Below the pieces are notes generated by a model. It made no database searches, was not told the DNA's origin, and saw only the letters and a list, made by a program, of their open reading frames with translations. A stretch of 64,000 bases of DNA from Datnioides undecimradiatus (Eukaryota > Chordata > Actinopteri > Lobotiformes > Datnioididae). Made by a program: the position numbers and the translations under genes. This document shows, one piece after another, positions 2,015-64,000 of this stretch. Every line of letters starts with the position of its first letter. The first letter of the stretch is position 1. The stretch is taken from NCBI GenBank assembly GCA_008933995.1, contig WARS01004319.1, positions 1,006,422-1,070,421 on the forward strand. The letters are read 5' to 3'.

Positions 2015-2144
2015 GTGTCTTTCCGTTGTCGGACTGGCGCAGACCTTCTCCCTCTGGGTAAACTGGGACCACGGTCACGGTGTAGGGGGTGTCTGACAGC
2101 AGGTTCCTCAGCATGGTGTTGGTGGTGCCGCCTGAAACCTGCTC
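2015..2144 (-). CDS. col12a1: col12a1 exon: FN3-20 (array copy 7), part 2
   Basis: 130 nt, phase 0 to 1. Encodes [40 protein letters not shown] and GKT, with donor GTACGT. It ends in phase 1, so coding continues beyond the window start. It is the most 3' exon I can see. Confidence 0.94.
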
Positions 2145-5100
2145 CTGTGCACAAAACAAACAAAAACAGCATCACTACGCAGTTCCCATATAAGGTCGGG
2201 CATGATGGGTCCAACCTGCACACGGAGTTACTGAAACTCTGTAGCACAGGAAGTCACAGGGCGTCTCACCATGTCCTCGGCGCCTCCGGCTGCAGGGATG
2301 TAGAAGATGCGATACTGGCGGACGTTGCCCTCCGCCGGGTCCCAGCGCACCTTCAGGGAGCTGGTGGTGGGATCGGTGACCTGCAGGTTCTTCACTCCGC
2401 CCAGCGCCTCTGTCAACGCCACACATGATTACAATCAATTTCCTGTTTGACTCACAGCCACGGCGAAGTGGGACGCAGCAGCTAAATGACTCAGTTTGAC
2501 CTTGTCGGAGCAACAGATGGGCGAGTTCTGTTTTGGCGCTTCAGGGAGGTTCAGCGAGTCTGTCAGTCACAGCGAAGTGACACCTGCTGACTGCCAGGGT
2601 GCGTTTCTCTGATTATCTAAACTTCTAAACACCACATCCTCCTGTTGCTGCTCTGCTGTTGTTCCAAACACACCCGATTTGTCAGATTTAACACACACAG
2701 ACAAATCTGAGGCAAAGAATTTGTACTTTTCTGTCATTTTGTCACATTTCTAACACAAATTTGATCATTTCCATGCAATAAAACATGAATTCCACAAACT
2801 ATTTTAGACTCCTAATCTGTTTTATCTTGAAAACAAATGAAAACATGTCACACAGCTCAAAACTTCTCACATACAGATGCTGGACTGTCAGAATCCTGAT
2901 TTGAAGACAGGACTGGTGGATTAACTGCAGTCTGTGAGCTCCGGGTTCAAACAAACCATGACAAGTTCTGGCGATGCCGTTAGTGAGACAGATGTGGCTG
3001 CAGCTGCTCCGCTCTGGCCCAACTCACTTGTCTTTCCGTTCTCCGACGTGCGTTTCCCCTCAGCGTCAGAGTAAATAGGCACCAGCGTCACTTTGTACTC
3101 GGTGTCCGGCCGCAGGTCTCTCAGCACCGTGTTGGTCGACATCCCAGACACCTGAGTCTGTGACGGACACAAAAACATGTTCGTTAATGTAAATAATCCC
3201 ACAACGCACTGTTTTATTACTTTAATTTACATGTGTGTCATCTTGCTGCAGCTTTATGATTTATGGAGCTTTCAGCTGCATCACATGAGCTTCATCAGCA
3301 CATGTGGGTTTGCTCAGTTGTCACAGGAACTGCCATGTTACTCAGGACTTCTCATCTGCCTGCTAGCTCTGAATAAGATGATACGATGAGATGTGATCAA
3401 AAGCTCCGGAGCAGATACTGAATGGACCTTGAAGGCTGTTTAATCAGCTCGTTCTAATTCACTTTAGTTGGATCCCCGCTGGCTTCTGCTGCAGCAGTCA
3501 GCAGGAACTGTTTCATGTGTTTCTTAAAAAGTCAAATCAAATCCAAATGAGAAAGTTCCTTAATCATCGTTCTTATAATCTGAGCAGGAAACGCACCATG
3601 CTCTCGGCTCCTCCGGCAGCGGGGACGTAGATGATCTGGTACTGCCTGACGTCGCCTTCCGCCGGCTCCCAGCGGACCCTGAGGGAGTTGGTTGTGGGAT
3701 CGGTCACCTGCAGATTCTTGACTCCACCCAGAGGCTCTGAAAGAGACGGGACACGTCAGGTATAACCGCGCTGTCTGCGTTCTCCCGCGCCGGCTAGGCG
3801 GGGTTCACCTCATCAGGACCGTCCCTTCCTCTTCCTGTGACCGTCTAAACCCTCCGGTGCTGCATTAGGCCAAAACAGCCCCATTAACAAGACATTTCAG
3901 ACTTAAAAGCAGAAAAACTGCTGCAAATAATCTGTAGCATTTGTTTTACCCTGCAGGGCGCACCAGATGGGTGGGAGAGCCAGATGTATCAGAGGTTGCC
4001 TAAACTTTCTGGTATTCATTGTTTTCTATTGTGAGTCACAAATGTACATACACATGCCCCACATATGTATCCTCCTAAGGACCATAGCGGTGGGTTTCCT
4101 GCATGTCTGCTTCACTTTACAGGCAGGTAACATGGTTCTTAGATGAATTCCCTGTTATTATGCTATTTTTAGCATGGTGATGCTGTTTTGTGCACAAAAC
4201 ATATTCAGATTTGTGTTTTTGGGGCCTGAAATCAAGAAGAACCACGTGTCAGCTGCAGAGAAGGTTGGATTTATGTGTGTATGCCCCAGCTATGCTGTGG
4301 TACGACGGTGGCCGACACGTTCAGAGGTAAAGAGATCCCAAAGCTTTCTGTCTTGAATGAAATAAACACGCTCTCCTGTCGTGGAGGACAGAAATATTTA
4401 CGGGCACCTCTTGCAAAGGCGAAGCTACAAACATGCACAGAAGATAAATAGCACCTCGGTTGTTTTGGTTTGAAATGTTTTTCTGCTCTCTGTGAACGAA
4501 CCCTCTGCCCTGGGCCTGCGAGTTGTTTTGCACTGCAGTAAAAATAAAGTTTAAATGAAAACAAAAGAACCAATAAATAAATAAATCATGCAAACATCAA
4601 TGGCATGAGGAGAATAATGGGAGTTTTATAGTAGCAATAAAACACTAGTTCCTTGGATGTTGGATGAGTCCTCGAATGCACCAGCAGGGAGAGATTACCG
4701 AACAGTCCAAGCGAGTGACTGCACCATCACCCCTGGACGGTTGGACACTGATCTGAAAACGCTCAGTGTCAGTTTGGAAGACGTCTGGCCATCTAACGAA
4801 GGTGCTCACAGTTTGAGAGACCCCATGGAAGCTTTATCCTCCAGGACGATGAACAATAACACTATTTAAATTCCTTCAGCTGCGTTCCCGCTTCCCTCAG
4901 TTAGATCTTCTCTTTGCTTGTCAGTCTCAAGGGGGAATCGAGGAATCGTGAAACAGAGAAAAAACATCACATGGATGAAGAAAAGGTTTTTAAAGTGGCA
5001 ACTGTGCAAACGCCTGATTCAAAAGGATCAGTCAAAGCAAAAGAAACTTGTCTGCTGCCAGTTTAAGGTCAGTGTCATAAGCTGCTCTGTCGTCTCCAGG

Positions 5101-5244
5101 TAGGGGAACGTCTAGTCATCAGATGCATCAGAGTGAAGGAGAAGATGCGACTTTGCTGACTCGGCTCTATCTGCTAAACTCCCATCTGACACAAACAATC
5201 CAGACGATCGTGGTCTGATTTGATTATCTGACTCTGTCTGTAAC

Positions 5245-5283
<39 letters not shown>

Positions 5284-8200
5284 CTACAGCAATGTGAGCT
5301 CTGTCTATTGTTGTACTGGACGGGAGCTAAACGTCCCTGTGAGTCACTCACTTGTCTTGCCCTTCTCAGCCTGCCGTATGCCCTCAACGTCTGGGTAGAC
5401 GGGAACAACAGCCACGTTGTAGACGGTGTCAGGCTCCAAGTTCCTCAGGATGGTGGTGGTGGTGCCTCCTGACACCTCCTCCTGTTCGGGAACGTTAAAA
5501 ACCTCTGTCAGCACGACAACGACTTGATCTAATAATGGCGATGATGGGTCACACGAGGGACATCACAGTGAACCAACGGCAGTTCGTACCACTCGCTCTT
5601 CTCCTCCCGGCTCAGCTGAGTAGATGACCTTGTAGCTGCGGACGTTGCCCACCGCTGGATCCCAGCGGGCCGTCAGAGTGCTGATGGTCGGGTCGGTCAC
5701 CTTTAAGTTCTTCACTCCACCCAAAGGATCTGAGAAGGAGGAGCCGTTACATTAGAGGTTAAATGACTCATTAACGAGTTATCTGGCCCTGTGTCCAGTC
5801 CTGGTCCAGGTCTAGCTGACGGACCTGTTCAGATACTGTTGTCTCCAAAGTCAAAGGTTCAAAGCAGCACAACAATTACTGGAACCTTTGAGGAGTTACC
5901 TTCAACATTTCATTAAAGGATAATATAATTAACAAGTTATTATTAGTTTCATTGATCTGTAAAAGGAAATTCCCCCGCAGCTGAACGAGATAAAGTGGTT
6001 GAATCTCCTTTTAATCAACACATTAAAGCAAATAAACCTGATTCAATCAAACTACAGTGCTTTTTGTTTTAAATCTATAATTCATGTGTCTTTGTTTCTC
6101 TATTGGTGAGAGAACGACAGTTTTACTCTACTCTATGCTTTGTCCGTGTTGATGAAATGGGTTCAGGCCCAGCATTGTTCCTCTCCGAGGAGGAACAACG
6201 GTCCAGGTCACGTCCTTCAGCTACAAATCCAAACTCACTTGTTTTCCCGTTTTCAGACTGCGGCTTGCCCTCCATCTCATGGTAGACGGGCACCACGGTG
6301 ACGGTGTACTCTGTGTTCGGTTCCAGGTTCTTCAGGACGGTGGAGGTGGTGCTTCCGGACACCTGGTCCTGGTCGCAGAGCAGAGAAGCATCTTTTTAAA
6401 CCGGGTGAACTGTAGGATCTGGAGAATTCTCAGGAAAGACATTATCAAGAAAAGCGAAGCTTGGCAGCCGCGGAGAGGCTCTCAGGCTGAACGATGTCAC
6501 AGCTTATTGCGCTGTGCGCCCAGTTTTCTTGGATGCAGCTTCGGTCAGTAAATGTCTCTGTGTGGTTCAGTAACAGGAACGGTAGAAGCTCGGAGATAAA
6601 GACGGATTAAAGGAGAAAGATTCCAGTCCAAAAGCTATCCCATGACAGTCTGGGCCTTCGAGCAGAACCACCAAACTGGCAGCAGGAAGGAGCGTACGTC
6701 TTCCTCTGCATGTACTCCTGCTCCGTCCGTTTAATCTAATAGTGAGTCCTAAATTCTGCCAATGAGCTGAGATAACCTCGGTGTGTTCCAACCCAAATCA
6801 TCAAATTTCACGACATTCCTTTAAACCCAGTGACATAATCTTCAGGCTAATGACACGGACCCCCTCAAGATATTGTCACTGCTTTGTAGAAAACAGTTGA
6901 AACTGCCTTGGAAATGAGTTTAAACCATCCCGCATCACTGTCAAATGTTTTCCATTAGCTGTAAGTAAATGTAGATTTTAAAGGCAACAACATTATCCAG
7001 CGGTTTTCATCTTCTGATAACTTGATTTTGCACTTTTTCCAGTGCAAGTAAAGAAAGTCCTTGCATGAAAGTGCCTTGGAAACAAGTGCAATCATCTCAC
7101 GCCGCTGGCGTTTCTCCATCCGAGAGCTCGAATTTGAGGCCAAAAGGAAGAATAAGCTGTTTTCTCACGCAGTACAGTACCTGCTCTCACTTAAAAGTGG
7201 TATTTGTACTTTCTTTGTGACGCAGTCATGGCCTGCAAGGGAACATTTAGCACTTTAAGGCATTTAAATGAAATTAACTCCTGTACACATTCACATTACC
7301 TTTCAAATCATCAGGAGGAGGAGGACAAAGGATACGAAGGACGATTGTTGGATGTTATTAATATAAAGAGCTCAGTCTAGACATGATCTACATGAAACGT
7401 GCCCTCAGATAACTTCTGTTATGACTTGGCGCCGTGCAAATAAGACTGAATTTAATAAAGCAATAAGACAAAGGAAGAGAAGAAGAACAACAAAAGAAGA
7501 AGAACAACAACAACAAAAGAAGAAGACAAAACAATGGAACAGATTCTGAAGATGAGAGGGGGAACAAGAAGATGAAGATGAAGACGACGAAGGACGATTA
7601 AGGGAAATAAAGACAAAAGAAAAGACAGAGGTAAAGAAGATGAAGACGAAGAAGACGACAATGAAGAAGATGAAGAAGAATGGACGTGTCCAGTCGTTCC
7701 TCATGTGTTACCAGCAGCTTTTTAATGAACAGCAGCTTTAATTAATCTAATTTAACCCTTGATTAACTGCCACCAGACTCTTCTTTAACAGTTATTCCTG
7801 TAGACGTCTAGTTTCAGCCTCTCACCACTTGTCACTGGTGTATTTATCAGTTTTTAACGTCCCCCAGATGAATCACTGGAGTTGTAACTTATTGTTTTGG
7901 ACTTTCTGTATGTGTTAGTGTTTTTCTGTCCTGGCAGCAGCTTTATTTGTGCCACGTGTGCGTCCTCACGTTGGTGAACGCGTTTCTTTATTTGCTGTGC
8001 TTTTTATTCCTAACAGTGCATTAGTCACAACGAATGGGTGGCTCAAAGAAAACAGGGCCACAATAAAACACAGATGCATTGACAATAATAACAAATAACT
8101 GATAGTGGGTTACAGAGAGAGGGCTTTTGTTTCAGAGTTTCCTGTGAAATAAAGTTTCTGAATGATCGTTTTGACGTTAGAGAAGCTGAAAAGTGGTTTG

Positions 8201-11200
8201 AATTAAAACAAACATTTCATTTCACATTTCAGGCAGTCATAAAAAGCAGGATACTAATGGGGCATGGATGAAGTTCTCAGCTTCTGGTCAACATCCAACA
8301 TCTGGAGCTGGCAGATGCTGACAGTTATATAAAAGCTGGCAGAGCTCTGTCAGTTCGCCTGTCATCTAGGCTTTCAGTAAAGATCAACGTGGTGGTGCTG
8401 ACATAGTATCCAAGTAGATGTAGATGCAGTCTTACCACATCCTGGTTTCCTCCAGCGGTCGGCACCCAGATCACGATGTATTCCCGCACGCTGCCCTCAG
8501 CGGGCTCCCAGCGGACGTTCAGGGTGCTGGTGGTGGGATCGGTAACCTGCAGGTTCCTCACGAAACCCAGCGGCTCTGAGCAGAGGCAGGAAACAGGAAG
8601 CCGAATTCAATACTTGGATGCAAGCGTTGCACAGCTGCTGTCTAGTCAGAGGTTACTGGTGTCCGGGGGGCAATTTGTTCAGATGCTGGACAGCGAGAAG
8701 ATGGTTGTTTTCTGCTTTACTTTTCCTTTAGGTCTAATGATTCAGGCTCAGTTCCTCTGAGGTTCATCACACTGACGCCGTTTGTATTCTTACATTACAG
8801 CGGAGGAGCTGTTTGCTGGTTCTTCTGTGCTTTATGAGCAAAAACACATTTTCACACTTACCACTAGAGCAGTTTACAGTTGGAAAAAAACAAAAAATAC
8901 GCTGCTGTTGAACAATAACTTCACAGAGACTCCAGTTTTGTGTTCAGGGTTCGTGGAGCTGACCGACAGCCACAGGTACTCACTCGTCTTCCCGGAGTCA
9001 GACAGGCTGGGTCCGTCTCCCTCTGCGTAGACCGGGACCACGGTGACGGTGTAGCGGGTGTCCGGCAGGAGCTTCTCCAGGACGGTTTTTGTGGTGCTCT
9101 CTGACACTTGCTCCTACAAAAACACAGGTGGTGAACTCGAGACCCTGCAGAGCTGCCCTTCACCGGGAGGTCAAATTCCTGCTGGCCCCGGGAGTCGTGA
9201 CCTTCGACCTCCAGTCGGTAAAAAAAAGACAAAACTTCCCCTCGAGGATGAGCACAGTTTCACAAAGTGTTCATATCAGTTTACTGCATTTAGACTGAAA
9301 TTACTGTCAAGCTGCTGTGAATTCCTGAAGGCTGAGACTGTATTTCTGTGCTGGAGGTCAAAATACTAAGACTGAGACCAAATTAAAACACCTTTAATTA
9401 AAACTGTCTTTAAGAAAACAGCCACAAAACCATAAGAATTAAAATCTTTACAATACCTGCAGGGAGAAACATATTAAAGACAAATCACCTCGTAAATATT
9501 TAAAACATAACTATTGAACTTTCAGAAGGAATTAACATGAAAAAGGCATTTCTGAGATAAGAATCACTGTAATTAAATAATGTGGGTTGTTGCTGTTATT
9601 AAAAATGTGAAAACCTTTGATGTTGTAGTTTATTTTCTGCGCTGTCTGTGTGAACATTTTTCCATTTTGTGACGTTTCACAAATCCAGTTAATCTTGGAC
9701 ACGAGTCAAAGTATGCGAGCTACTCTGGGATGTGCAGTTTCTCCTCGACCGAGGAACCAACACATGAAGCCACACGAACAACACTCAGATTCCTCTGGCA
9801 GAGGAGTTTTAAATTCCTGCTAAATTAACTCTGACGTACTAATTGGGGGTAAAAGTCGTGTCATCTGCAGAAGCAAACAAACCATTTCTAAACAGACAAA
9901 CGCGAGCAGCCAAATCGTTTGAGCTGTTATTTCACGGATCTTAATGGTCTAAAGCTCGGCGAGCGCTGGCGGCGGGCGTCTGATTAACAGGATTTACACA
10001 CACTCGTTCGGCAGAAGTATAAACCCTCCACACACACACACACACACACACACACGCCGTGCAACGATGAGGGACGCTCTCTTGGAAAAAGACTTAGGCG
10101 CGTTTGTGTGGCAACTGCATGATGGGATTATTGCTGTCAGCGAGCATGACATCACTAAATCCCTGTTGAGGGCTTTGATCGTTTTGCTGCTTTTGATGAA
10201 CGACATTTCAAACGAAATCTGACGGCTTCTTCATTACCTCCTGCTGAAAAACCTGCAGATTTTTTTAATTTTTTGAAAATATTCTGTTGTAATTTTGTTG
10301 CCTCTGGAAACTTGACCAGATTTTCCCTTTTTTATTTTTACTGCGTGCACTGAAAGGCTTCTCCAAAGAGGAGAGAGAGAGGCGTTGTCGCGGAGCACTG
10401 GTGTGAACAACACGACGCCATGAGCCAAAAACATCTGATACTTTTTCCAGATCAGACTGCCGAGACGTCCAACAACAAACAGCAGCAGCCAATCAGATCT
10501 GAAGCAGCAGACGACGCTGGTCTGAACTCTAATCTTATCTAACTGTGCTTACTTTATAGATAAAGGAGTGTATCTCAAACCACATCCCCTCAGGACAAAG
10601 TCAACACTGACTGGCTGATTAAAAAGATAATATCATCTGGAAACATGATGACAAATGATGTAATATCATAATAAAACATGCAAAACTAACATTTCTTTAT
10701 CAGTACATTTGCTTTGTTGTTATAACCTCGTGTTTTACTTTAAATCAACCACATTTTCTCTCCAGTTGTCATCATTTCCCAACATGGATCACAAACAGCT
10801 GACTCAACCTACCCTAATCAACCTGACTTAAGCTGGTTCAAATCAAGCTAATGCGTGGTGCATTCTGGGAGATTTTAAAATCTGTATTTTAAATCGCAAG
10901 AGCAGACACATCAGATCATTAAGTCAGGACGGACGCCTGACCACAAACTTGGTGTTTATAAACAGCTTCAGAGTGGTGATACGGGGGTCTCACAGACAAT
11001 CACAAGAACGAACACACATGGAGGCAGACTGACATCACTTAGCGCCAAACACCAAAGTCATTGCTGAGAAGTTAGGATAGGACCGATGAAGATGAAAAAT
11101 GATCTTACCACAATCTCCAGCCCTCCGTCTGCAGGGACGTAGATCACCTTGTAGCCCTGAACGTTGCCGTCAGCAGGATTCCAGGTGACAGTCAAAGTGG

Positions 11201-14200
11201 TGATGGTCGGGTTGGTCACCTTCATGTTGCCCACTCCGCTCAAAGGCACTAGGAGCAGGTGGAGGATTGTTGTTGTCAAACTGTCTTAACACTGCTACAA
11301 AACCATATTTTAAAGCAATAATTACATCATTGAAATCCAGTTCACAGAGACTTACATGTCTTTCCGTTCTCTGACTGGCGTTTGCCCTCCCTGGCTGGGT
11401 ACACTGGTAACACAGACACTGTGTACGGTGTGTCGGGCATTAAGTTCCTGAGGATGATGGTGTTGGTGCCAGCAGGAACCTGCTCCTGTTTACCGAGATT
11501 AATAGTAAAAAGTCATTTAAATGATCTGTCTCCATACTGGCTGCTTCCCAGCCAGCTTCCTGATCAGGTGGAGGTAAAAGAGTCTCACCATTTCCTCCAG
11601 GCCACCAGCAGTGGGAATGAAGAAGACCTTGTACAGGCGAACAGCTCCATCAGCTGGGTCCCAGTTCACAGTCAGAGAGGTCATGGTGGGGTCCGTCACC
11701 TGTAGGTTCTTCACTCCACCCAGGGGTCCTAAACAAGAGGACATGTCAGGCTGCTGTTTTAGACCCCAAATCTCAAAAAGCTTAGTCATTTATGTCAATA
11801 TATTGAGACTGTTACAATCTGTTGTGTTTTTCTGTCATGAATGAATGTTTAAGGCCTGAAATTAAATTTAAAAATGTATATAATTTTGGAAAAGAAACCC
11901 AGTAGGGTGCAGAAATTAACTTTAATGAACTAAAAAATGTAGGAACCCTCATTTAAATGGAAACTGGTAAATGTTAAACACCTTGCGTTGTTACAGAAGG
12001 GCTGAAACTACGGAAGCTTAGAAGGACATTCAAAGGCAAATTTACCTATCAAGCTAATGATTTCAAAAATTCCATTAAACTGTTGTAATGTTTTCAAAAA
12101 CACGACATTAGGAGTGTTGTAGTTAAAAATAAAATAACCGAAAGACAGCGGGGTATTTGCACACTCCACTGCATCGGTTAATCCACTCAAAAGACAGGAA
12201 ACGAACCTGAAAGCCCGGCTCACACTGTTTCGATGAATCATGGCGCTAAAACCGGAAGGCGTAACAGCCGTTTGCAGACCGAAGGAGAACATTATATTGT
12301 TTATTTGACGTTACGTATGCAACTAAACCGCACTTAGAATCTAGCGAACGTTAGTTCAAACACTCGACACAATTTATTTTGGAAACTGAGAGTAAGAAAC
12401 TGTGGTAAACTAGCTAGACGGCTAGCCACCTGTATTTAGCTATATGTTCTCCGTTTAGAGCGACGCACTTGCGCAGTCATTTTAATCGGCACGCGCGCCA
12501 CTGCCACCACTGCAGGCAGTGAACAAGACATTTGGCTGGAGTTAAGAAATGGTATGGTCCATATAAGAGGGGTGTTAAATAGTTTTACAAGATTATTTTA
12601 GATATAAAATGGGACATATTTTGTAAAGTTTACGACCCCACGTATAAACGCTTACATATCTTTGTAGCCCACTGATCTGTTGTTCTCCCCTCTTTTAAGG
12701 CAAATTAAAATTAATTAGCGGTGCTCGAATCTCCCCCGTATTTGGATTCATGATAAAGTTGTCCACGTACTAGCTGCCAGCTACTTGAGCGGGCAGTACC
12801 AAGGCTGTTGAGTGGTGTTTGAAGAAAGATGTATATATATCCTTCTTTTTAATGTACAATGCACATTTTACAGTTAAGTTTTAGAGTTCATTATTTGGAT
12901 TTTGATAAAATGGTTTGTTTGTTGTCGACACATTTAAAGCTTAAATGTACCATAGAAAAAAAAAATAGACCACTGTGCATATTTTCAGTGAAAAGCTTTC
13001 AGTAAAGCACAGTAAATGTACCATGTGTGACTCATCTTAATGAACAACCCAATAAAGCTATGTAATGAAATGTAATTCCTTGTCAGGACTTGTCATGAGA
13101 CTACACATCTGAACTTATCCAGTTAAAAATAAATTAAATTACACTGTCATGTAGTTTTCGGTCTTACTTGTTTTTCCATTTTCAGACATTGTCTTTCCGT
13201 CTCCGCTGGCATAAACCGGCACCAGAGACACAGTGTAGAGGGTGTCTGGCTGCAGGCCTCGCAGGATGGTGTTGGTTGTGCCTGCAGACACTGTTTCCTG
13301 AATTTAACAATAAATTACACTAATTAGCTGCTTCAAAGCCCAGACAGAAGACAGATGAACAAGCATGCATCTAGAAATAAAGACGGAACATGGAAAGTAG
13401 CAAGCAGGAGCATCAGCTTTCAAAATGCATTTGAGTGCAGTCCAGGTAAGCTCCAGTTATACAATACTATCTCATTAAATCATTAGCTGTTATCAACATG
13501 CATGGACATCTGAAATGTCAGGGTGAGGTGAGGTCCTGTCAGTGCTTTCTTCACAAACATCTAAGGTGAAACGTGTTTTGAGGGACGGACATGTTCAAAC
13601 ACAAAGGTGAATAGTTTAGCTTCGGGCTCATCGTGCACGGTGCCAGCCAGCAGGAAGCGGATGGTTGTCCTACCAGTCCTACCATGCTCTCAGCTCCTCC
13701 GGCAGCAGGAGCATAAATGACTTTGTACTCCTTCACCCGCCCCTCAGCGGGCTCCCAGCGCACGTTCAGGGTGGTCATGGTGGGGTTCAACACCTGCAGG
13801 TTCCTCACTCCACCCAGAGGCTCTGAGAGAACATAAATACATGTGTTCAATCACATGTGGTACTGGCATGTTAATGGAACAAATTCCTACATTTCAGAGG
13901 GAAATGTTGGTGTTTTCACCCAGATTTCATACACAACATGACATAAGCTTGTAAATTATAATGTATCTTAATTATAGCTTTCAAAACTCATTAAAGGCAC
14001 AGTGACATTATTGACACTCTTACTGGTTTGTCCTTCTGAGGAGATGTCCCTGCTGACACCAGTGGGATACACGGCGGCCACAGAGACGGTGTACTGAGTG
14101 TCGGGGTCCAGCTTGTGCAGGATGACGCTGGTCTTCTTCCCTCCAACCTGCGTCTGTTCAGAGGAGACAGATCAGCAGTGAGTCTGTGCCCAAAAATGTG

Positions 14201-17200
14201 GGGTTGTTCAATGTCTCAAAAGCTCTAAAAATACAACTAATGATCAAACAAACAAATCTTGAAAAGTCTTTCCTCGTGAAGATTAAACTTGATTTTCATT
14301 CATTCATTTTCATTTTCAACGGGACTAGAGTGAAACCCAGTTCTCACTCAGATACATGAGAATAAGGTCATGGTTAGATAATACAGGGCTCCATTAAGTG
14401 AAAACAATCTATATAATTACAAAATGAAGCAACTGAATGTCTGTAAACCTGTAAACACTTATCCCTGCTGTCATCGCTCTGTCTTCCAAAAGCTAAACTG
14501 AAATGCTAAAATGTCCAAAAATGTGCAGCGTGTCATGTTTTGGAGACTTATCCACTGTTTCTGTGGACGATGTCGGCAAACTATTTACATTATTTATACA
14601 TGAGGAGGTTAAGTATTTCTCTGGATGGGGATCCAAGTAGGCCTTAGGGAAATCTGGAGCAAACAACTGCGCAGTATATCATGAAATGGACACAACACTG
14701 TCAACACAGTCATGGCGAGTGTAAACAGTTTGCCTAGTAGCTTAGAGATACATGACGGAGGGTATCACCTCACATTTACTTCAGTATTTTGGCTGACTCT
14801 TTATTGTGGCAAACCGGCGGCGGGTCAGCGTGTTGTTCAGTATCTCATGTGGGAGTCAAACCTGCGAAATGTCAATGGGATAATTGTTTAATTATGAAGT
14901 TAGCAAGAACTGGAACCTCGACTGATACAGATTTGAACAGTTTACTGGTCATCATCAGCTGATCAGTGTGTGTGTGAGTGAAACAGAGCTTCTCTCTGTG
15001 ACTGAGCAGCGACTCAGCAGCGATGTGACTCTGCAAAGGTCAGAAGCTGCTTTCTGAAACACATCACTGTATTAAAGAACAGCATTATATACTGTAATAT
15101 AGCTCATACTTGATGTGTGTAAGCTGATATGTACTACTTAGTTTTAATAATAAATCAAGTCATATTAATGCAAACCAATGTGATTACGTATCATAAATAT
15201 CAAAATTTGGGCCAGATTTTCAAACATTTATTGTTTTCTTGACCTACTTCTTGAATAATTTATTGTTTCAGCCTACAGACTACAGACATAGTGGGTGTCC
15301 ACTGTGAGTAACGGTAGGACCACCTCGGTCACAAGCTATCACTCTTCTCGACTGTAATATTTCGGTGTGTTTAATAATATAACATTAGCACACAAGGGGA
15401 CTTAACAAATAGCAGTTTTCTGTAGTTTTCCATAATATTTGCTCAAATCCCAAAGTGGACATTTTTCTAGTTTTCTGCTTTTTCAGAGCAGTGAGGAAAC
15501 CCTGAGCTCATCCTGCACAAACAAACATCCTGTCTGCTTTCACATGACGGATGTTAAAAACAACAAGCCTGCAGACGACAACACGACACCAGATGCTCTC
15601 AGTCCTCTGGTATACACATCTGACGTAGCGCAGGGATCAGAGATCCATTAGGCAGATCCGTACCGCTGACATCATGATTCGACCCTGACACGTTGTTTGG
15701 GGGAGCACTGTCATAACATCTCAGGGACACAATAAAATCTGCAACTCCCTGAAATTCTTTTCCTGCAGCCCAAAGTTTCCTTTCAAGTTATTTCCACGGC
15801 TAATCAGCGTTAAGTCACCGGGCAGGAATGTGAACTCTGCCGGCCAGACGTGGGACTCCTCAAACTGTACAATCAAGCTGCAGGACGCTGTCATAAACCA
15901 GACGTCAGAGTATGATGAAGCAGCTCAGGAGCGGATCCTTTACAGAGCGCTGACGGCGATTTGCTGAGCACCTTCAGGACGTTTCTGTGTACCTTAAGAG
16001 AAGACAAGTCTTTAAAACAAAATCCGACTTGTGCTGTGAGCGCAGTGTTTTTGGCATCCACTCTTTTACTAAATTGATTTTACGTTTGATTTTAAATGCT
16101 GGTCCATCATTTCATCGCCATATTTAGAAAACGTTGGATTTTGCCTTTAACTTTATGTAACTGGGCCCAGTTCCTCTCGTATGAATGCATACAGGCGCTA
16201 TCAGCAATTTTCATACCGCCCTCTCTGCAAACATCAACTGATCTATTTTATAAAAATGCATGAAGATGACGCAGCATGAGCCTTTCTATGACTCTGTGCT
16301 TTCACTTTCGTTCCCTGCAGGGTTTTATGTATTTTTTGCATCTTGGACATCCTGAACGTGGATTTCCACAGGGAGAGAAGACTTCCCATCATATTAAACT
16401 GGTCATTGTTGATCTGTTTTGATATGTACACTGGGACTCATATTACAAACTCTTCTGACAGATTTAAACCTCTCCATCATATTGAGATATTCAGCGATTT
16501 GTCATCGAGTGGCTGAAGCACGCTGGAGATGTTCCCAGTGGTCAAAAAGCAGCACAGCCGGCACTACCGCGCCCAAACACAACTTGACCAGAACCCACTG
16601 TGAGACGTTATCGGGATAATCCACCCTAAAAAGGAATCCATTCATATTGTTCCTCAAATTCTGGACAAACAGACGTTACCCTGTGTGCGTTCACGGCCAT
16701 GTGGTGACGGGAGAAAGGGATTTGTTTTCTGGTAAACCACATATTTACAAAGAAAGTCATGAACTGAGGCCAGTTTGGGTGTAAAATCTCAGATAAACAT
16801 TTTAGAAAATCTCCTCAGACACTCTATTGTTCAGTGTCAGTGGAGCAGCTCCAGCTTTCGTCTCTTGATAAAATGCAGAGCCAAGTGTGTGTATGAGTGC
16901 GTGTGTGTTTGGTTTATGTGATTTCTGCTGCCTGGTTCACATTTACAGTAGATGTGCAATGAAAATAAGCAATAAAAATGCTGAGTTTGAATCAAATATA
17001 TTCCCATGTTAAAACTATAGTTTCTAGGACCCCAGAAATTGCACCATAATTTATATTATTTTGACAATTTGTGAAACTTTATTCTATTTTATGAATTTTT
17101 TTTTCTTGTGGTCTTTTGAAGATGATTTAAAATGCTTTTATCTGCCTGTATCTTACACAAAGCAAATTTAACTGTCTTCGTGTTTGAAAGACGCTACATG

Positions 17201-20200
17201 ATATAAGCCTTGACTCATGTTACCCAAGTGTTACGCCTGCTCTAACAAATATTAATTACTTCCAAGTTTCCTCCTGTTTTTCCTCAGCACATTTTAATTT
17301 TCATTAATTAACAGGACAAATCTACAGTGTTTCTACAGGGGAGGAGAGGAGCCATTTTTGGTATTTATATATGCCGATGACACCGCTGTATTTTTAACCA
17401 AATTTTCTCAGCGTTAGTTTAAATCCTGTAAAATAAGCAGTAAACTTACTACAAGGGGCTCGCCTCCAGCCACAGGATTGTAGGTGATCTTGTAGTTCTG
17501 GACTGGGCCAGGGGCGGCATCCCACTTCACAGACAGCGAGGAGGTGGTGGCATTGAAAACCCTCAGGTTTCGAGGAGGCTCGGGAGATACTGGGAGCACA
17601 CAAACAACTCAAGTCAGATAAACAGAAAGAAACAAGAGCGTCATGTGTTTGATTAGCGATGATGATGGTGATGGTGAGGATGATGATGATGGCAGTGATG
17701 CTCCCGCAATCCGGCAGGTCACAAAAGCTGAAAGGGTCAATTTTAGGATGAAAAGCGGCAGTTGATGAGGATTAAAACAGGAAGAGCAGCGTGGTCAATG
17801 AAGCTGTTCAGAGCAGGGCTGGAGTTCATTAACTTCTATTTATCTTAATATCTTATGAGCTATTTTTCATAATTACAGTCAGTTGCTTCAGCATTTTGGG
17901 ATAAAAGTGATTGTTAAAAGAAATTTTTGCCATACGGGGATAATAAACAAATTGAGGGTGCCAATTTAACAACCTTTGGAGCTTAAAACATACACTTTAA
18001 AACACATTTTAAGACTGTTCTAGATTAAATTTAGGAATCTGCCAAAAATAGGGATTAACAAATACATATAATGGAAATGTTGGCATTATTACAAATAACA
18101 TTAGGAAACACAACAGGAGTTTTTAAATATTTACAAAGATACAGAGTCCGGGATTAAATCCTCTTGTGAATTAGAAGCTGGCTGACCTCCAACCCCAAGG
18201 AAACACTGTACAATAACACAACAACATGCAAAAACAACATTTTATGATGGCTGTTGAACACTGATGAAGAGTGACATGATGACACAATAAAATGACGTTA
18301 CAATGTGAGATGAATGAAACTGCGACAATAGAAATGTTATAATGACAACGAAGGATGGGAGGGGAGCAGGTGGGGGTGGGACAAAACAAAATGACTGACA
18401 GTTGAAATAATCATTCACATGGACGGACGTCTGTGGAGGATGACATGTTTCAGGTCAGTTTACACACTTTTTGCATTTAAAGCTCTGAATCTACGTTCAC
18501 ACCACAAACTGCGACAAATAATTACAACAAATACTATTATTTGGCTATCCAGCTACCAGCATTAGTGTTTACTAAATTTTAAGGGAGTAAGGTTAATTAC
18601 ATAATTTAGCTGAAAGCCTTATTAGCCTATTGGCTGAATGACTGTATATTAATTAGGTTCTTCTTCATTTGACTTGACAGTTATGTCTTAAGTTTGCAGT
18701 ATATGTCGTGAAATAGTCCTGCCGTGGTGTTGTAACCATCTATCATATGACATAAAAATACAAATAATGCTGCTATCGCTAGCTAGCAAATTAGTTTGCA
18801 GCACCTCCTGTATCCAAAGGCTACAAATTAATCATCACACCATCAGTTAATACCAGAAAATGCAAAATGCAGTTAAGTACTTGAATGGAAAAAAAACCCA
18901 ATAATTAATTTTAATGAAAATGTGGAGATTTAGTAACCAATGATGCACCACAAGGTGTCCTTACATGGAAAATAACATACCTGGACACCACTAAGTTCAT
19001 TATTTTGCATATCAGAACACTTGGGTGTATAAAATTTAAATATAATTCAGGTTTTTTAAATATTTCTTTTGGATGATCATATGGCATCTGTTCAGTTAAG
19101 TGGATAAACTCCTTACAATACAGCAAAGTCTCTTAGCTTTGACTTGACTGACTCGAGTTGCTTGTGGTGTGAACGCACAGTGAGGCACTGAAATGCACAA
19201 ACATGCAGTTAAATGAAAAAAGAGAAAGTGTGCTTCCATCAACACTGTCTCTTGTGGTCCACACAAACCAATGAACGTCACAATGAAAAGGAACCTGCCC
19301 TTCTCATATGACATACCGTCCGGAGCCTTTAACACTAGAAAGAGACGTTGAGAAAACAAGTGTTATTATTTCAGCGTGAGTTACGTCTGTGAGCGTAAAA
19401 CATGATGGTTGTGTTTCGGGGGCCGCTCTGTCGACGTGGGCGCCGGGGGCTTGCTTACATGTGCGCTCGCTTCCCATCAGGTCTTCGCTCTCGGACTCGT
19501 CGGGGTAGATGGCCGTGACGGTGACGGAGTATTCAGTGTCCGGGTCCAGGTTCTGCAGAACATGGGAGGTCTCGTCGCTATTCAGGATGGCCTGAGGGTG
19601 GACACAGGATGAGAAGAAGAAGAAGAAGGTCATTCGATCCAGGTAGAGGATGTGGTAAACTATATTTTAATGGCTGAAGACCTTTTGTAATCTGCCCCTT
19701 ATTGCTTTTTGGATTGGGTTTTTGTTTTATTTACCTCTGAAAATGTTTTATTTGAAGTTGTTTTAATGTGAAGCTCTTTGTAATGCAGGTTTTGAAAAGT
19801 GCTCTATGAAAAAATACTATTATTATAATCAAATCCGACTGACTGCCAACGGGTTTGAAAGGCATGTTTTCTTAAAAAAATTGCCAAAATCACAGTATTT
19901 TTCATAGCCGGAGCCTGTGAAAACAGAAATTATCGTCACTTCAATCAGGAAAACTCAGCAAACCTGAACTGAAAATATTGATCTTTCATCAGAGTCACTT
20001 TATTCTACATGTGTCAGTTAAAGTTTAGGCAAAAATAAACCGTTTGTACAAACCAGGCCCTGTAAAAAGCGGGAAGCCTTGAATGATTCAGCTTGAGAGC
20101 AGCAGTCACAGGAGGAGAGATTTTCAGCTTGTGTTTGATGATTTGATGATGATTTCTGCCACTCCATTTGTGTTAAACTGTGTTAGACGTCTTCCGGGTT

Positions 20201-23200
20201 CTCCTAACTTCTAGCCATAATTGTGCTGTTTCCGTAGAGGTGCAAGACTCAACCTGCATTCACGTGTTGTCGGAATAATCGGTCAAGTCGTTTATTAGCA
20301 ATAACCCTGGTAACAGGTCAGCCAAAACTTTATTTTAGTGGTTTTAGTGAATGCACTTTGTAATATAAATCATCAAACTGTTTCAGAAACACGAATCTTC
20401 ACTTGGATGTTCATCTCAACATTTCTGTGGCATTGGTGTTGTTTCCACAACAACTTAAAAGCTCATGAATGCACAAAAGTTCATTGCATTTTGCGTTTGC
20501 ACCTCAGTCGAGGTTCACAGACGTGTCCAGAAGGCACCAGAAGCAAGTTCCTGACTGACTGTTTTGTCCTAGTTTGTACTCCACATTCATATGAGTCATG
20601 CTTTTGTGCTGAGTGCTCATTAAATTACAGTTTAAAAAGTCACCTGTCACTCAAACATTATGGGTGAGACGTCGTTATAAAACAGAAAGCGGCAAACTTT
20701 TGGGTACAGCTCCGCAGCTTGTTCTCATAACTGGATAACTGTATTTCATTTAAAACCCGACCTCTGAGACAATCAACAGAGTCTAATAACGTGAAATTCT
20801 CAGACAAACTGAGCCTGTAATTGACAACCTGGCATGGATTTCATTCACTGATATTTGTGCTGAAGTAGATGTCGGGTGGGAGGCCAAACTGGGCCCAGGA
20901 ACAACCTTGAAGGACGAAAAATAAAACAAGAGGGAAACAATGGGAGCATTATTGTTGCTTCAGCTAAACTGGATGTTTTAACTTAAGTCTTGGCGTGCAG
21001 CGTAACTAAGTTCTGTGAGGCATGTCACTTTAAGGGATCTGTGAAACCGCAACGTCTGATTCGTCTGATTTTCTTTTTTTGCTTCAGTAATGAGAAAAAT
21101 CTTAAATGACAGTTCTGCAGCATGACTGTTTCATCTTTCGCATAAACAAAACCATCTCCGGTTTCATAACTCCAGCGACCTGCCTCAGAGAGCAGAGGCG
21201 GGGACGTTAGCGGGAAGGTGGACGGTTTGATTTGGGACCCGTTTGAAAGGTCTGAGCAGGTGTGTTTGAATGCTCCCAACCTGAACTCTAGTTTTAATCA
21301 GAGGAAAGACTGCGAGGCCACAGGCGATAAACCTTCACCTTGGGTTGGATTCTGAACTGACTTGGTGGCTCAAACCAGATGTTTAGTGCCGTTTATCCAG
21401 CTGCTGAAGATGCATTTTTCTGATAACAAATAGAAATGTAAAGTGGACAAAACAAATCCAGATACTGGTATTTTGGATAAAAGTCAACGTGCCAGATGTT
21501 GATGTGGAATTTCCAGACTCTCTTAAAACTTTTTGGAGACGGGTGTTTGTCTCACCACTGAAAGAAGATCCAACTGTGTGTGCGATGCAGTGATTTACAA
21601 CATTAAGCTAATTAGTTTAACTTCCATCCACTGATTCGTTGACTAGCTGAAGCCTTTTTGGAGCTTCCCAGAACTTATTGTATGTACCAAAAGCAAAATG
21701 TCATTGCATTGTCATACTTTGATAACACTAACAAAGGGATTACAGGTGTTGAAATGTAAAGTGTGATGGTATAAAGTGAGCTGAACCCAAGAACAAAGTG
21801 GAAAATGGGAAATGAACCTACAGAACTTATTGGGAGCTGTGTTAGTCTAATAGTAATCAAGCAACATCTGTGGTTTGTAGTAAGTGTTAAATATTATATC
21901 TTTTGTCAACGTTGTGTCGGTTTAATCAGAGATTATTATTATCTATTGTCGGCTCTGGTCTCTGGTCTGGTCCTGGTCTTTACTTGCCGTTCAAAATGCT
22001 GCATTTGAATGTAGGAGAACTCCTCCTATACTGGAACCAGGACTTACAAACTGGAAGTTGTTCTTCCCCTTCTCGGTCCAACCGATGCGGTACAGGGCGA
22101 CGTCTGGGGCTCCGTGCTCCCATGTGGCTCTGAACGAGGTGTGGGTCACCTCGGAGAACCGCAGGTTCTTGGGGGCAGGAACAACATCTGTTCACACAGA
22201 CAGAAACAGGAGGGAGGAAGGATGTGCTGGTGATTACGAGGAGGTCTGAGCGATGAGGCAACGACATGTGAAGACTATTTACTGTTGTTACGAGTGTGTA
22301 GCTGACTGCACCTTGTAGGCCAACCTGTGTGAATGTGTGTGTGCACTTATCGTATATGCAAGTGTGCTGTGTTTAGATTTGTTTGCACTAGCACAAGTCT
22401 GTTTGCATGTTGTTGATGCTGTGTGTGTGTGTGTGCAAGTGAAAGTGTATGTGTGTTCAAGGGGGTTATGTCAGGAGCTTGTCCTTAGTCAACGCATTAC
22501 CTAAAGTGTGCAAACACTGCTGTTTTTGTCAATGGAGTCTGTCGGAGTTCAGCTGTTAATGGGAGCAATTAACCTAATAAAGACATTCGTCACTTAAATG
22601 GTTGTTGTTTCTTTAATTCTACATAAAACAACCTGTACAGCTGGTCAGCTGTTCCTCTAACTAAGGTTTTATGCAGAAAGCTGTCACTAAGCAAAACACC
22701 AGATAGTTGAATCTAAGCAGATCTGAGATCTGGGCGGTCTATCAGAGATCTGGTTCATTCAGAGTCAGGAGCTGCAGAATCTACAATGTCAGTGGGGTGA
22801 AAAACAAGTTTATCCACAGTTCACAGTTCACCAGGGATTAATGATCAACAGAGCCAATGCAGTAAATGATCACACACACTCAGATTTAATGGTGCACAGA
22901 GAGTCCAGACCCTCTGGAGGCTGCAGTCTGCAGTCCAGGAGTGAAGTTGATTCAGAACTCGTCACTGTCAAAGACATTGTGCACATCTCTAAAACACATG
23001 TACTGTTCACGTACTGGAGAGTTTGATGCAATTAAAGGGTAGTTTACAGCATTTTCTCACTAATGCCAAATGATATCTAGCTATATCTATGGTACACGCT
23101 TGATGGTTTTGATATCATTTTAAACTTTTGCTACCAATCCAATAAAATGGAGGTAAATGGAGTAAAAGTACATTTAACGCCAAGTGGAGATGCTCGGTGA

Positions 23201-26200
23201 ACAGTCATGGAGGACTGTGGCCCCACTGAGCAGCTCTGATGTGTGAAATCAAAATGCAAAACTGGAGAAAAGACAGATTCAAACCTGTGATGGCGTTTCC
23301 GAGCATTGGCGTTCCAGGTCCCGAGTCATAAACTGGGGTGACGGCCACGTCGTACTCAGTCTGGGAGATGAGGCTGGACAGGTCCAGGGTGGTGATGTCA
23401 CCGTTGACTTCGACCTGTTGTTGGGAAAGTTAATTATCAGTAACTAATCATTTTGAGGTGTCCATTAATTAATTAATTATATGTTTGCTGTACTAAATCA
23501 ATGCACTACTGTTCAACTAAAGGCCTGACTAGAGAGCTTAGAACTGGGGTTATATGTGTAACCAATAAAACGTATAACTACACAAACACAAACTTTATTT
23601 TTAATATGTTTGATATTTGCATTAATCTGAATGTTTATGCATGTGATGCAGCCTGATCTGAACATCTGTCAGGATCTTAAAGCTCTTAGCTGAGTCGTCT
23701 GAGACCTGCTCCGTCCTGGACATGTAACACCTCAGTTTGCCGACAAGATATGATCAAGAACTTCAGAACAGCTACTCAAAAATACCAAAAAATGTTTTGC
23801 CAACGTTTATCTAGAAGCAAAGCAAAGCAAACATTAGGAATTCAGAGGGTTAGAGGCAACATAGCAAACTGTTTACCAGTTTTATGTGAAACTGAGATAA
23901 GCAGAGGTAAATAAAACTAAAACAAAGAACCTCACGAAAGCTTTGATGTCAAAAAATGCTGAGACATGGCTGCTCCGTTGAGTTTTTCCATTTCAGGGGA
24001 GAGTTAAGTGAAGTAAGCGCTCAGCAGGCATTAATCCAATCTTCTATAGAGACAAGAAGCCCTCAGCTGTAATCCTTAAGAGGAGATGAGCTGCTGTGTT
24101 TCATCCGTCAAAGCTTTCTGGAGAACGTCCCGCGGGTGTCCATTGACAGCACCTTCGGCTGCCGATTCATCCCAGACTGTTTGTCCTCTGCTGACATCCA
24201 AGTGAGAAATTATGAGGGCGAAGTGGCGCTGGGATGATCCAGTCAGGCTGGGGCAGACGACCTGAGCCAGCGGCTTCCTCCGCCAGCAGACTGCTTTTCT
24301 CATAAAGTTCAGCCAACAAAGAGGAGCTGCTGCTCTGCCGAGACTCCGGCCATAACCCTGGACTTCCTCACTTTCCCAGAACGAAGATATCACCTCTGAC
24401 TTCAGCCGTGTGAAGCCCTCGCCGAGACTTTAATTGTTCAAAGTCGCCTCTGAATGACCTCACAAACAATACCGACATTTTTCAAACAAGCCTTGCGGCA
24501 ACCGTGAGGGAGCAACAACCGATACCTGCCAACAGAAAAGGTCCCTGCCGTACACGCGAGACTCATTCAGGCTATTTAGGCCGGCGCTTTCAAAATCGGA
24601 GTGTTTTTCAACTGCACAACGAGGACAAAGACGGAGACTGCAAGAGATTCACCGAGTCCAAGACAAACAAATCCTAAAGATTTCCGCGCAAAGAACAGAA
24701 GAAAGAAAACAGATGCCATTCAACAGCAAATGGAGGGTTTCTGAAACCAAAATGGGGCTTGTGAAAGGTTCGTCTCTTTGATGAATGCTGTTTTTCTTTC
24801 AACCAACTGACCAATTAATCGAATAACTGGTTTATCTCTGCTCTTTTAAAGCTAAACACAGGTAGAAATGTGTCATCAACCACTGACTCATTGTCAGTCA
24901 AACAGCAGTTTTACCTCTTTCAGGTCTCCTCCCTCCGGTTTGTAGGTGATCATGTACTTGCGGACAGCTCCAGGTGCAGCGTCCCAGTTGAGCCTCATGG
25001 TGCTGTGAGTAACATCGGTGATTCTCAGGACTCCAGCAGGCGGCACGGGCACTGGGGGAGGAAAAGGGAAACGTTGAACCATCCTGACTCAAGTATAGAA
25101 GCACTTCCGAGCCTGGCATCACTGTCGATTCTGCTGTGAGAACATTAAAAGCTGCTGACGGACCCCCGTGGGGCCAAAACACCAACCGGAGAGCCGAAAA
25201 ACAGACACCAGCTTGTTTTCGAAACTGCTGCCGACTTGGATAGTTGGTTTTTCAGTGCATCTGCTTTCTATCTATAAGCTCTGAATCCAAAATATAAACC
25301 GTGGGAGACGTGATCCAGCTCTTATAAAATGACTCCTGACATGACAGTAAAACTGAAGTAAACTCTGGTAAAGTTCTTACCTTGACTCAAACCTTTACTC
25401 ATAAAAATCGTTTTAAAAGATGCAAGTTCAGGTATCGTGTGAACATAACGCAGAGAACAAAACCCAAAGAACTTCATTTTATCTTTCTTTGAGGCAAATC
25501 TCTGAAGACAGGATTAATCTAAGTGTGTGAGACACATTTGAATATGATTATGTGAGTGATAGCTGAGGGGTTTAAGTACTTGGAAACACTCACGGACTCA
25601 AGGCTAAAACTTAGGTGATGCAACGTCTGTGAAGAAACCAAGCTCTTCCAATGTCAGAATGTTTTAGAGTTGGTTTATAAAAGCTTTGTCGAGTCATATC
25701 CTTTCATTTATCAGGTTTATGTGGGAGTCAGGAGCACAAACAAACTGTCAGGAACTGGAAATACACCAAGTAATATTACAGGACGGCTTCGGCAGCAAAT
25801 GTCAGGGCCAGATCTGACTCAACCGAAAGGTCGTCTGATTGACTCTGGACTACTTTCTTTTGAGGGGCGATACGGAGCCCTCTGGTCGGCAAGAATCTGT
25901 ATTAAAGGCGTTAAACTTGTTTCTTGGTTTTGTTTCGTGCCAACCATTTAATGCCGAAGCTGCAATAATGATCTTCGAGCGCAGTTGACTTTCTCATTGA
26001 TTTAAGAGGTCTCCTCCATGCTTCTCGCCAATTTTCTGTCAGTGCTTATAATGGATGCTAGCTATGCAGGTAGACAGCATGCTGAACCTTAATCCTGCTG
26101 GAAACTGGTCATTTTAGTCGACTTTCTCTCCTAAACCAGAGACCAATATAACCAGCTTTAGTAACTATGCAATGGCTTGTAGTTTACATTTGGTCTGGGA

Positions 26201-59200: not shown

Positions 59201-61538
59201 TGGAGCTGACGTTTTGCACACTTTGAGTATCGTTTTGTTTATTGCCGTTTTAAATCGTCCTTCACGCGCCGGATTGTTTCTAATACATCTTAATGTCAGA
59301 CAAGTTGTTTGTGGACTGCATAGCAACCAGGAAACAACAACCAGACAAATACGTCCAGAACCTTTAACCTCAGCTGAAATGAAGCTGAGCTCTTCAGAGC
59401 TTTTAGAAAACCACAGAATAGAGCTTCTCCTCTGAGAACTGAGAGCATATTTCAAGTTTGACGAAGCAGTTTCTGAATCAGTGACCTGTTTCCAGAGATG
59501 AGCTGTTATCATTATCATTATTATTATTATTACTTAAGCACCAGAACTCTTTAACACCATAGCAACAGCCCACTTCTGTTTCTCCATCCTGAGATTGTGG
59601 AAAGTCTGACGGAGAAGCCCGAGCCTAAACATACATAAAACTTGCTATCACTCGCTTGTAACGTTAATGATGCAGGAATCTCGCCTTCTGTCTTTACGTC
59701 ATCACTGGCCGCTTTTCCTACGACCGACGGTTACAAGCATTAAATGGAAAAATGTAAGACGTGGAATGTAATAAACTTGTTCTGGCTACGCACCGAGGAC
59801 AAAGATCTCCACCCCCTTGCTCCTGAGCTGCTTGGCGTAGCTCTCCACTGGATCCTCTGATTTGCCATCTGTGATGATGACCAACACTTTGGGAAAATCC
59901 TTCCTGGCGCCGGCCGCCTCGGTGAAAGCGTTTTGCAGGACGTAGTCGAGGGCATCGCCTGGGGCAGAGGGACGAAGAGGAGTTTTAAAGTGATGCTCGG
60001 ACAGAAAGTGACAGTTTAACAGTTCCTCTTCACCACTGACTGCTGGTGTGCTTCAGTTTTAAAGAGGCGGGTGAATCAGGTTTATATTGTGTACTGAGTT
60101 TTAAAATACAGGTGAAAAGAAAAAATTTAACTAAATATTGTTACATTTTTAAATTAAGGTGCATCTCAGACATGAAAACAACTTAAAACCTGTTAATTTT
60201 TTAAAAATATTTCAACTTTTCTACATGTTCCTCTGCGTTTTTAGGTTTCTGGAACTGTAAATGTTTGATTTGGGTAAATATTTATTGTCCTAATTGATGT
60301 TTTTGAGTATTAAGTATTTCTGTGTTGATTTGAAATGACAAATGTGTCCACAAAGTAAAAATGCCTATAAGAGTTAATAAATACAGTTTCATCTCAGATT
60401 TCATTATTGAAGCATTCTGAAAAAGTCACGATTTACACTTAGAGGTGTAAAACTGAATAACTTGTGACATGTTTTATTGTAATAACAGTAAAATGAACAG
60501 AAACTACAGCATCAAAGGACGTTAACGTACCTGTCATGGTGTTTCCTCCTTTGTAGGGCAGCGAGCCGATGGCCCGCAGCAGCGCCGGGCGCGTCAGGTG
60601 TTGGTTCAGGTTGAACTCAGTACGGGTGTCGCTGCTGTACTGAATCACGCCCACCCGGGTCTTGTCCTGTCCGATCTGAAAGGCGCCGGCCGTCGCTGAG
60701 ATGAAGTTGCGGATGTACTTGAAGTTCGGCCTGCCCACACTCGAGGAGCCGTCCACCAGGAAGACCACGTCGGCGATGGCGCTGAACGAGCATTCTGGCA
60801 GGAAAACGTGAAGAAGAAGAAGAAAAGGTGAAATAAACACAAACACTTCTGAACTACACAGCTGTACTGGAAAATACTGAGCAGCGGTGGAAAGTAACTT
60901 AGTAAATTTACTCAAATACAGTATGTATAATGCAGTACTTTGCAGCATAATATACATATTTATATAATGTGTTGTAATAATATTGATTGAATTAAGCCAC
61001 ACTGTTCTGTAATACTGCTACTAACATTTAATGGCAGTGCTTTTTTTAATAGTAAGGAGATTTTTGGACTCTTTAGACTATTTTTAGACTTTCTACTCTG
61101 ACTTCGTTGGACTTCTTCCACCACTGCTTAACAATAACGTGACCGCCACACCAAAGTTAATGAAAGGGGTTTTTCTGCAGGATCGCGGCTGTTTCCTGGT
61201 CGAATGAGCACCTGGAAAAGTGCCGTACGAGCTAAATGTTGATATGACTTTGATTCCGTTTTAATGACGTAATATGGTTTATTTAATAAAAGCTCTGCAA
61301 TTGAAGGTTTGGCTGGTTTTCTGAAATGAACTCGGCGTGCTTTGGGCTTATTATTCATTATTTTCTGGTTATTTAAGAACCCTTAGACAGCTGTTCAGTC
61401 ACACTGGATGTAGAATTAGTTAGAGGTGCAGGACTTTGTGCTTTGCTTTGCTTTCTGGGAGTTTCCTTCTGACTTTCCTCTCGTGAAAAGAAGGAAAAAA
61501 CCAGCACAAGCTCGTCATCATCCCCAGAACTGGGCCAG

Positions 61539-61571
<33 letters not shown>

Positions 61572-63990: not shown

Positions 63991-64000
63991 CGGAGACGTG

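What the first reader, a model, noticed from the sequence alone, without database searches (positions are those of the whole stretch)
2015..13822. Seven-copy tandem expansion of one FN3 module in the collagen XII array
FN3-14 to FN3-20 all share [16 protein letters not shown] starts, a PAEG/PADG core, an AGG segment, and a Y(T)VxVVPVY...ENGKT end. They resemble human FN3-14 far more than human FN3-15 to 18. As I remember it, human COL12A1 has ten FN3 domains between vWA3 and vWA4. Here twelve are already present and no counterpart of human FN3-15 has appeared. This would make the fish NC3 arm longer and more repetitive, with possible effects on reach between fibrils or on ligand sites.
Basis: partly seen in the sequence, partly recalled or inferred. 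Interest (0 to 1): 0.75.

Follow-up and report, generated by a model that had tools for sequence, protein, structure and literature searches.

The report
Fish collagen XII with sevenfold repeat
One of the two collagen XII genes of this fish carries seven copies of a protein module that the other gene has once, which should make the arm of this matrix protein about six modules longer; the array looks old and functional, but what the extra length does is not known.

Summary
Seven two-exon FN3 modules (window 2015-13822, minus strand) are 53-71% identical to each other and 20-48% to the eight other FN3 compared with them. Followed past the window edge in its own genome, the gene has 16 FN3 domains between vWA3 and vWA4. 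The same genome has a second col12a1 gene (contig C492) with 10 there and 18 in all, the number published for collagen XII. In a tree of 40 domains, 16 of 16 other domains pair one to one between the two genes; the seven copies join the second gene's single FN3-14 (support 99/97). Pairing copy 15 or 20 with the next domain is rejected (AU p about 0.006). So FN3-14 stands sevenfold in one gene only. A 99.8% identical contig (probable other haplotype) carries the same seven copies. The copies have intact splice sites, no shared introns, dN below dS (21 of 21 pairs), and synonymous divergence about 0.8 of that between the two genes: an old array. Function (longer, regular arm) is inferred. Other fishes could not be examined.

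The parts
13683..13822 (-). FN3 copy 14, exon A
   Evidence: acceptor TCTCAG, donor GTAGGA
13168..13297 (-). FN3 copy 14, exon B
11589..11728 (-). FN3 copy 15, exon A
11356..11485 (-). FN3 copy 15, exon B
11109..11248 (-). FN3 copy 16, exon A
8984..9113 (-). FN3 copy 16, exon B
8436..8575 (-). FN3 copy 17, exon A
6239..6368 (-). FN3 copy 17, exon B
5590..5729 (-). FN3 copy 18, exon A
5352..5481 (-). FN3 copy 18, exon B
3597..3736 (-). FN3 copy 19, exon A
3028..3157 (-). FN3 copy 19, exon B
2270..2409 (-). FN3 copy 20, exon A
2015..2144 (-). FN3 copy 20, exon B (donor GTACGT)
14025..32766 (-). FN3-9 to FN3-13, five unexpanded domains between vWA3 and the array, each paired one to one with the second gene
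34900..35043 (-). start of vWA3 (matched stretch)
   Evidence: 87.5% identical to the second gene
37735..60795 (-). vWA1, FN3-2, vWA2, FN3-3 to FN3-8
   Evidence: FN3-1 was not found in the window, a 79% match lies near the end of contig C142

Best explanation
The window gene is one of two col12a1 (collagen XII alpha-1) genes of a fish. In it the 14th FN3 domain, a two-exon unit bounded by phase-1 introns that can be repeated or skipped without shifting the frame, stands in seven copies instead of one, giving 16 FN3 domains between vWA3 and vWA4 instead of 10, and probably 24 in all instead of 18 (23 seen on this contig; FN3-1 seems to be on another contig). The other gene kept 18. The likely route is unequal crossing over between neighbouring modules (inferred). 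The array is old and kept under selection on the protein. Its likely effect is to lengthen the large N-terminal NC3 arm by six uniform modules, changing how far the molecule reaches from the fibril it sits on (inferred). Shown: architecture, copy number, one-to-one mapping, intact exons, age class. Inferred: direction of change (gain), crossing over, arm length, tissue effect.
For: Order vWA1-FN3-vWA2-FN3-vWA3-FN3-vWA4-TSPN-COL in the window gene. Second gene on C492 with 8 FN3 before vWA3 and 10 after; FN3-14 occurs once there. Tree of 40 domains: 16 of 16 other domains pair a with b (15 of 16 starred, FN3-21 at 85/57), seven copies + b14 at 99/97. AU test rejects a15+b21 (p 0.0057) and a20+b21 (p 0.0060), the two such pairs tested. 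Introns: phase 1 between modules, phase 0 inside, 7 of 7. dN 0.20-0.39 against dS 0.71-1.43 over 21 pairs. The same seven copies, exon proteins letter for letter, on a 99.8% identical contig C205. Published 18 FN3 for collagen XII.
Against: The seven copies apart from b14 form a clade only weakly (94/75 in protein; 28% of 200 bootstrap trees in DNA), and b14 joined with a20 or a14 is not rejected (p 0.39, 0.23), so expansion before the two genes split, with loss in the other, is not excluded by the tree. No transcript was seen. No arm length was measured. No outgroup gene (gar, tetrapod) was at hand.
Confidence: 0.88

Rival explanations
1. The ancestor of both genes already had several FN3-14 copies and the second gene lost them; the window gene shows the older state.
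For: Copies differ from each other at synonymous sites almost as much as the two genes do: corrected distance ratio 0.79, bootstrap 0.55-1.15. b14 with a20 or a14 is not rejected.
Against: Published collagen XII has 18 FN3, the second gene's number, so this needs a gain and then a loss. The best protein tree puts b14 outside the copies (94/75).
Confidence: 0.1
2. Assembly artefact or recent copy-number blow-up.
For: Tandem arrays are prone to mis-assembly (general knowledge).
Against: Copies are only 62-75% identical in coding DNA, and BLAST of the 12.4-kb array against itself (E up to 0.001) found similarity only at exons and up to about 25 flanking bases. The same seven copies on a second contig.
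Confidence: 0.01
3. Copies 14-18 are one to one with tetrapod FN3-14 to 18, made alike by gene conversion, with only two real extra domains.
For: Exon A and exon B identities do not correlate over the 21 pairs (Mantel r 0.06, p 0.44), as exchange between copies could give.
Against: The counterparts of the four domains that follow FN3-14 in the second gene lie after copy 20 (a21-a24) and pair with them. AU rejects the alternative for a15 and a20; a16 to a19 were not tested that way.
Confidence: 0.02
4. The extra modules are real but mainly multiply a ligand site rather than add length.
For: 26 of 89 positions are invariant in all eight domains, some of them probably outside the FN3 core (the placing is by eye). 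The NC3 domain binds tenascin-X (reviews).
Against: No RGD, KGD, LDV or N-glycosylation motif in any of the 8 domains; net charge varies from 0 to -5. Module length never varies over the 7 copies.
Confidence: 0.25

Closest known systems
Collagen XII alpha-1 (COL12A1/col12a1), 18 FN3 and 4 vWA (PMC10017729, PMC11007232, passages seen)
   Same: Four vWA, FN3 domains, TSPN and collagenous parts.
   Different: Seven FN3-14 domains instead of one; 16 FN3 between vWA3 and vWA4 instead of 10 (the 10 in human is recalled; in the second gene it is counted).
Second col12a1 gene of the same genome, contig C492:514000-545000 minus
   Same: 16 of 16 compared other FN3 domains pair one to one (identity 56-83%).
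   Different: One FN3-14 only; 18 FN3.
piccolo b of teleosts (PMC3484663; abstract, opening and sections 23 and 26 read)
   Same: One of two teleost duplicates amplified one exon module many times (8-16) while the other kept the ancestral form; unequal crossing over of single modules proposed.
   Different: Zinc finger on one exon in a synaptic protein; here an FN3 domain on two exons in a matrix protein, seven copies.
esyt1b of teleosts (named in PMC3484663 section 26)
   Same: Domain gain in one of two zebrafish duplicates.
   Different: C2 domains from five to nine by one internal duplication; not a run grown from a single domain.

Membership tests
Collagen XII (FACIT) | Four vWA domains interspersed with FN3 domains | tested here: met
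   vWA1 60795, vWA2 57614, vWA3 35043, vWA4 -14024 (beyond the window) found by tblastn; FN3 between them
Collagen XII (FACIT) | TSPN domain then short collagenous stretches at the C-terminal side | tested here: met
   TSPN-like exon at -19628 (73% to the second gene; the name TSPN for that exon is my reading) and Gly-X-Y exon at -33879
Collagen XII (FACIT) | 18 FN3 domains | tested here: not met
   23 FN3 seen plus a probable FN3-1 on another contig; the difference is the FN3-14 expansion alone. The rest pairs domain by domain with the second gene, so it is filed as a variant, not as a standard member
Collagen XII (FACIT) | Homotrimer on collagen I fibrils | not testable with these tools
   needs protein
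Fibronectin type III domain (Pfam PF00041) | Score above the Pfam cut-off | tested here: met
   7 of 7 copies, 39.8-57.5 bits, cut-off 25
Teleost-duplicate pair (ohnologs) | Both genes arose at the teleost genome duplication | tested here: inconclusive
   two genes on separate contigs, 56-83% domain identity; age and synteny not tested against other fishes
Ohnolog-specific domain amplification (piccolo b kind) | One duplicate expanded, the other at ancestral count | tested here: inconclusive
   7 against 1 is shown; that 1 is ancestral rests on the published 18 FN3, not on an outgroup sequence

The most novel reading that the evidence does not exclude
Early in teleost history, after the genome duplication, one col12a1 gene turned FN3-14 into a regular seven-module spacer, and many fishes since have carried two collagen XII arms of different length, a long-reach and a standard form, possibly mixed in trimers. 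It would be a second clear case, after piccolo b, of a domain run amplified in one of two ohnologs. (Odds lowered from 0.45 to 0.40 on re-reading: two zebrafish statements, speak against zebrafish sharing it.)
Probability: 0.4. Interest if true: 0.6.

Novelty: new variant of a known kind. Interest (0 to 1): 0.5.

Why it matters
[quoted passage not shown] A natural pair of genes in one animal, one with a standard arm and one with six extra modules, lets arm length be tested directly. It also adds a candidate to a class that the author of the piccolo study found very rare: of 1598 zebrafish pairs surveyed, four genes had gained three or more domains in one member; all four are named, two as misannotations, and col12a1 is not among them (PMC3484663, section 26). 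If the difference between the two genes holds in laboratory fishes, experiments on one cannot stand for the other.

Tried and rejected
PDB sequence search with copy 19 found tenascin, fibronectin and collagen XX among 22 sequences but no collagen XII, so it gave no ortholog reference. Six paper searches showed 6 of 6, 15 of 115, 12 of 18, 12 of 72, 12 of 264 and 10 of 13 papers; none of those listed says in its title or the shown start of its abstract that col12a1 FN3 domains are expanded. Six papers were opened, in part: passages of PMC5526933, PMC10017729, PMC5081208, PMC11007232 and PMC11401434; abstract, opening and sections 23 and 26 of PMC3484663. That the expansion is not in print therefore rests only on those searches in an open-licence library. 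The chicken primary-structure paper is not held; the zebrafish collagen XII paper (Bader 2009) was seen only as a reference. The figure behind the zebrafish statement was not seen.

Duplication order: identity does not follow nearness (Mantel r -0.22, p 0.81) and exons A and B do not agree (r 0.06, p 0.44), so no order is claimed. The DNA tree of 14 rows was unresolved inside the array. FN3-3 was left out of the synonymous comparison because its coding DNA was not recovered by the script, leaving 15 of 16 pairs. FN3-1 was left out of the tree for both genes.

Structure prediction and fold search were not run: the tool takes proteins read straight from the DNA, and these domains are spliced.
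Full report
What was checked. The window lies at G000:C207:1006422-1070421 of a 581-Mb genome held in 497 contigs. The gene runs on the minus strand, so its 3' part lies at lower contig positions. I fetched 80 kb beyond the window's first base and read splice sites and frames. Negative numbers below are positions beyond the window's first base.

The seven modules. Each of FN3-14 to FN3-20 is two exons. Exon A begins after a phase-1 intron and ends in phase 0; exon B begins in phase 0 and ends in phase 1. All seven have exactly 46 + 43 whole codons; the other eight FN3 domains listed in the same call have 88 to 91 residues. Mutual protein identity is 53-71% over 21 pairs; between these seven and the other eight domains it is 20-48%. 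7 of 7 score as Pfam fn3.

The rest of the interval. After copy 20 come four more FN3 domains: FN3-21 (-1163 to -4892), FN3-22 (-5999 to -7570), FN3-23 (-8807 to -9228) and FN3-24 (exons inside open frames starting at -9259 and -11970; its exact splice sites were not set), then vWA4 at -14024, a TSPN-like exon at -19628 and a collagenous exon at -33879. With FN3-9 to 13 this makes 16 FN3 domains between vWA3 and vWA4. FN3-2 to FN3-8 lie upstream in the window. FN3-1 was not found on this contig, which ends at the window's last base; a 79% match to the second gene's FN3-1 exon lies 2 kb from the end of the 82-kb contig C142, so the full gene probably has 24.

A reference inside the same genome. 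A search with copies 19, 20 and FN3-21, 22 gave its best matches on three contigs: the window's C207, C205 and C492; other contigs matched only at E 2.3e-7 or weaker. C205 aligns to the window gene over 44.7 kb at 99.8% identity excluding gaps, and carries copies 14-20 letter for letter (7 of 7), so it is probably the other haplotype, and the copy number is seen twice. C492 holds a second, diverged col12a1 gene with 8 FN3 before vWA3 and 10 between vWA3 and vWA4, 18 in all. Two reviews give 18 FN3 and four vWA for collagen XII (PMC10017729 and PMC11007232, passages read).

Tree. 40 domains (23 of the window gene, 17 of the second gene; FN3-1 left out of both) were aligned and a tree built. 16 of 16 other domains pair one to one between the genes, 15 of them with starred support and FN3-21 with 85/57. 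The seven copies and the second gene's FN3-14 form a clade at 99/97. Holding a15 or a20 with b21 costs 35 log-likelihood units (AU p 0.0057 and 0.0060); the other copies were not tested that way. So the copies are not counterparts of the domain that follows. Whether b14 lies outside the seven is less sure: 94/75 in protein, 28% of 200 bootstrap trees in DNA, and b14 with a20 or a14 is not rejected (p 0.39 and 0.23).

Age and upkeep. BLAST of the array against itself (E up to 0.001, low-complexity filter on) finds matches only at exons and up to about 25 flanking bases. NG86 dS is 0.71-1.43 and dN 0.20-0.39 over 21 pairs. At four-fold sites the copies agree at 380 of 764 (chance 0.28) and 15 single-copy pairs between the two genes at 227 of 540 (chance 0.26). 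The corrected distances stand as 1.20 to 1.52, ratio 0.79, bootstrap 0.55-1.15. The array is thus old, not far from the age of the two genes; gene conversion, if any, would make it look younger.

Against an expansion shared by all teleosts stand two statements on zebrafish. Marro and others say that zebrafish col12a1a has a structural organization similar to col12a1b (PMC5081208, passage; the figure behind it was not seen). A survey of 1598 zebrafish duplicate pairs found only four genes with a gain of three or more domains in one member, none of them col12a1 (PMC3484663 section 26); its author warns of poor annotation, by which his own case was missed too. So an origin after the line to zebrafish split off is possible, or the zebrafish models are incomplete.

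How it most likely works. Modules bounded by introns of the same phase can be added without frame shift; unequal crossing over between alike neighbours is the route proposed for piccolo b. This is inference here, since introns keep no trace. In the protein, six extra modules of constant length should lengthen the arm by about 20 nm (FN3 spacing recalled, not measured). One review says the short splice form is cut between the seventh and eighth FN3, so the array should be in long and short forms alike if the fish splices the same way (inferred). None of the cell-binding or glycosylation motifs looked for is present, which fits a spacer better than a set of binding sites, though it does not exclude the latter.

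Verdict. Observation confirmed and interpretation supported, with limits: one genome only, no outgroup gene, and no protein or transcript data. It is a new variant of collagen XII and probably a further case of domain amplification in one of two fish duplicates.

Noticed in passing
G000:C205:992396-1037000 against window -12999 to 31674: A second contig 99.8% identical to the window contig (96 mismatches, 127 gap bases over 44.7 kb) and of nearly the same length: probably an unmerged haplotype.
   Followed up: yes
window 61000-64000 and G000:C142:80275-80388: The contig ends inside the 5' part of col12a1; the FN3-1 exon seems to lie near the end of an 82-kb contig, so the gene is split over contigs.
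   Followed up: partly
L023, C492:556000-557000: Open frames upstream of the second col12a1 gene look like TMEM30A (name recalled), which I recall as a neighbour of human COL12A1; not searched against a library. No match to it was found within the 144 kb of the window gene's contig searched.
   Followed up: partly
-12626 to -12769 (beyond the window), between FN3-24 and vWA4: Open frame with a proline- and threonine-rich stretch (VVKPTPVPTLPPTPTPPPTIPPA), possibly a hinge exon; not compared with the second gene.
   Followed up: no
window 11357-11726, 5353-5727, 2016-2407: Three of the seven modules have inner introns of only 103, 108 and 125 bases while the other four have 385-2067.
   Followed up: partly
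window 13741-13830, 8488-8584, 2322-2412: The first halves of exon A of copies 14 and 17, and of 17 and 20, are 83.5% and 84.6% identical in DNA, more than the whole modules, as short conversion tracts might give.
   Followed up: partly
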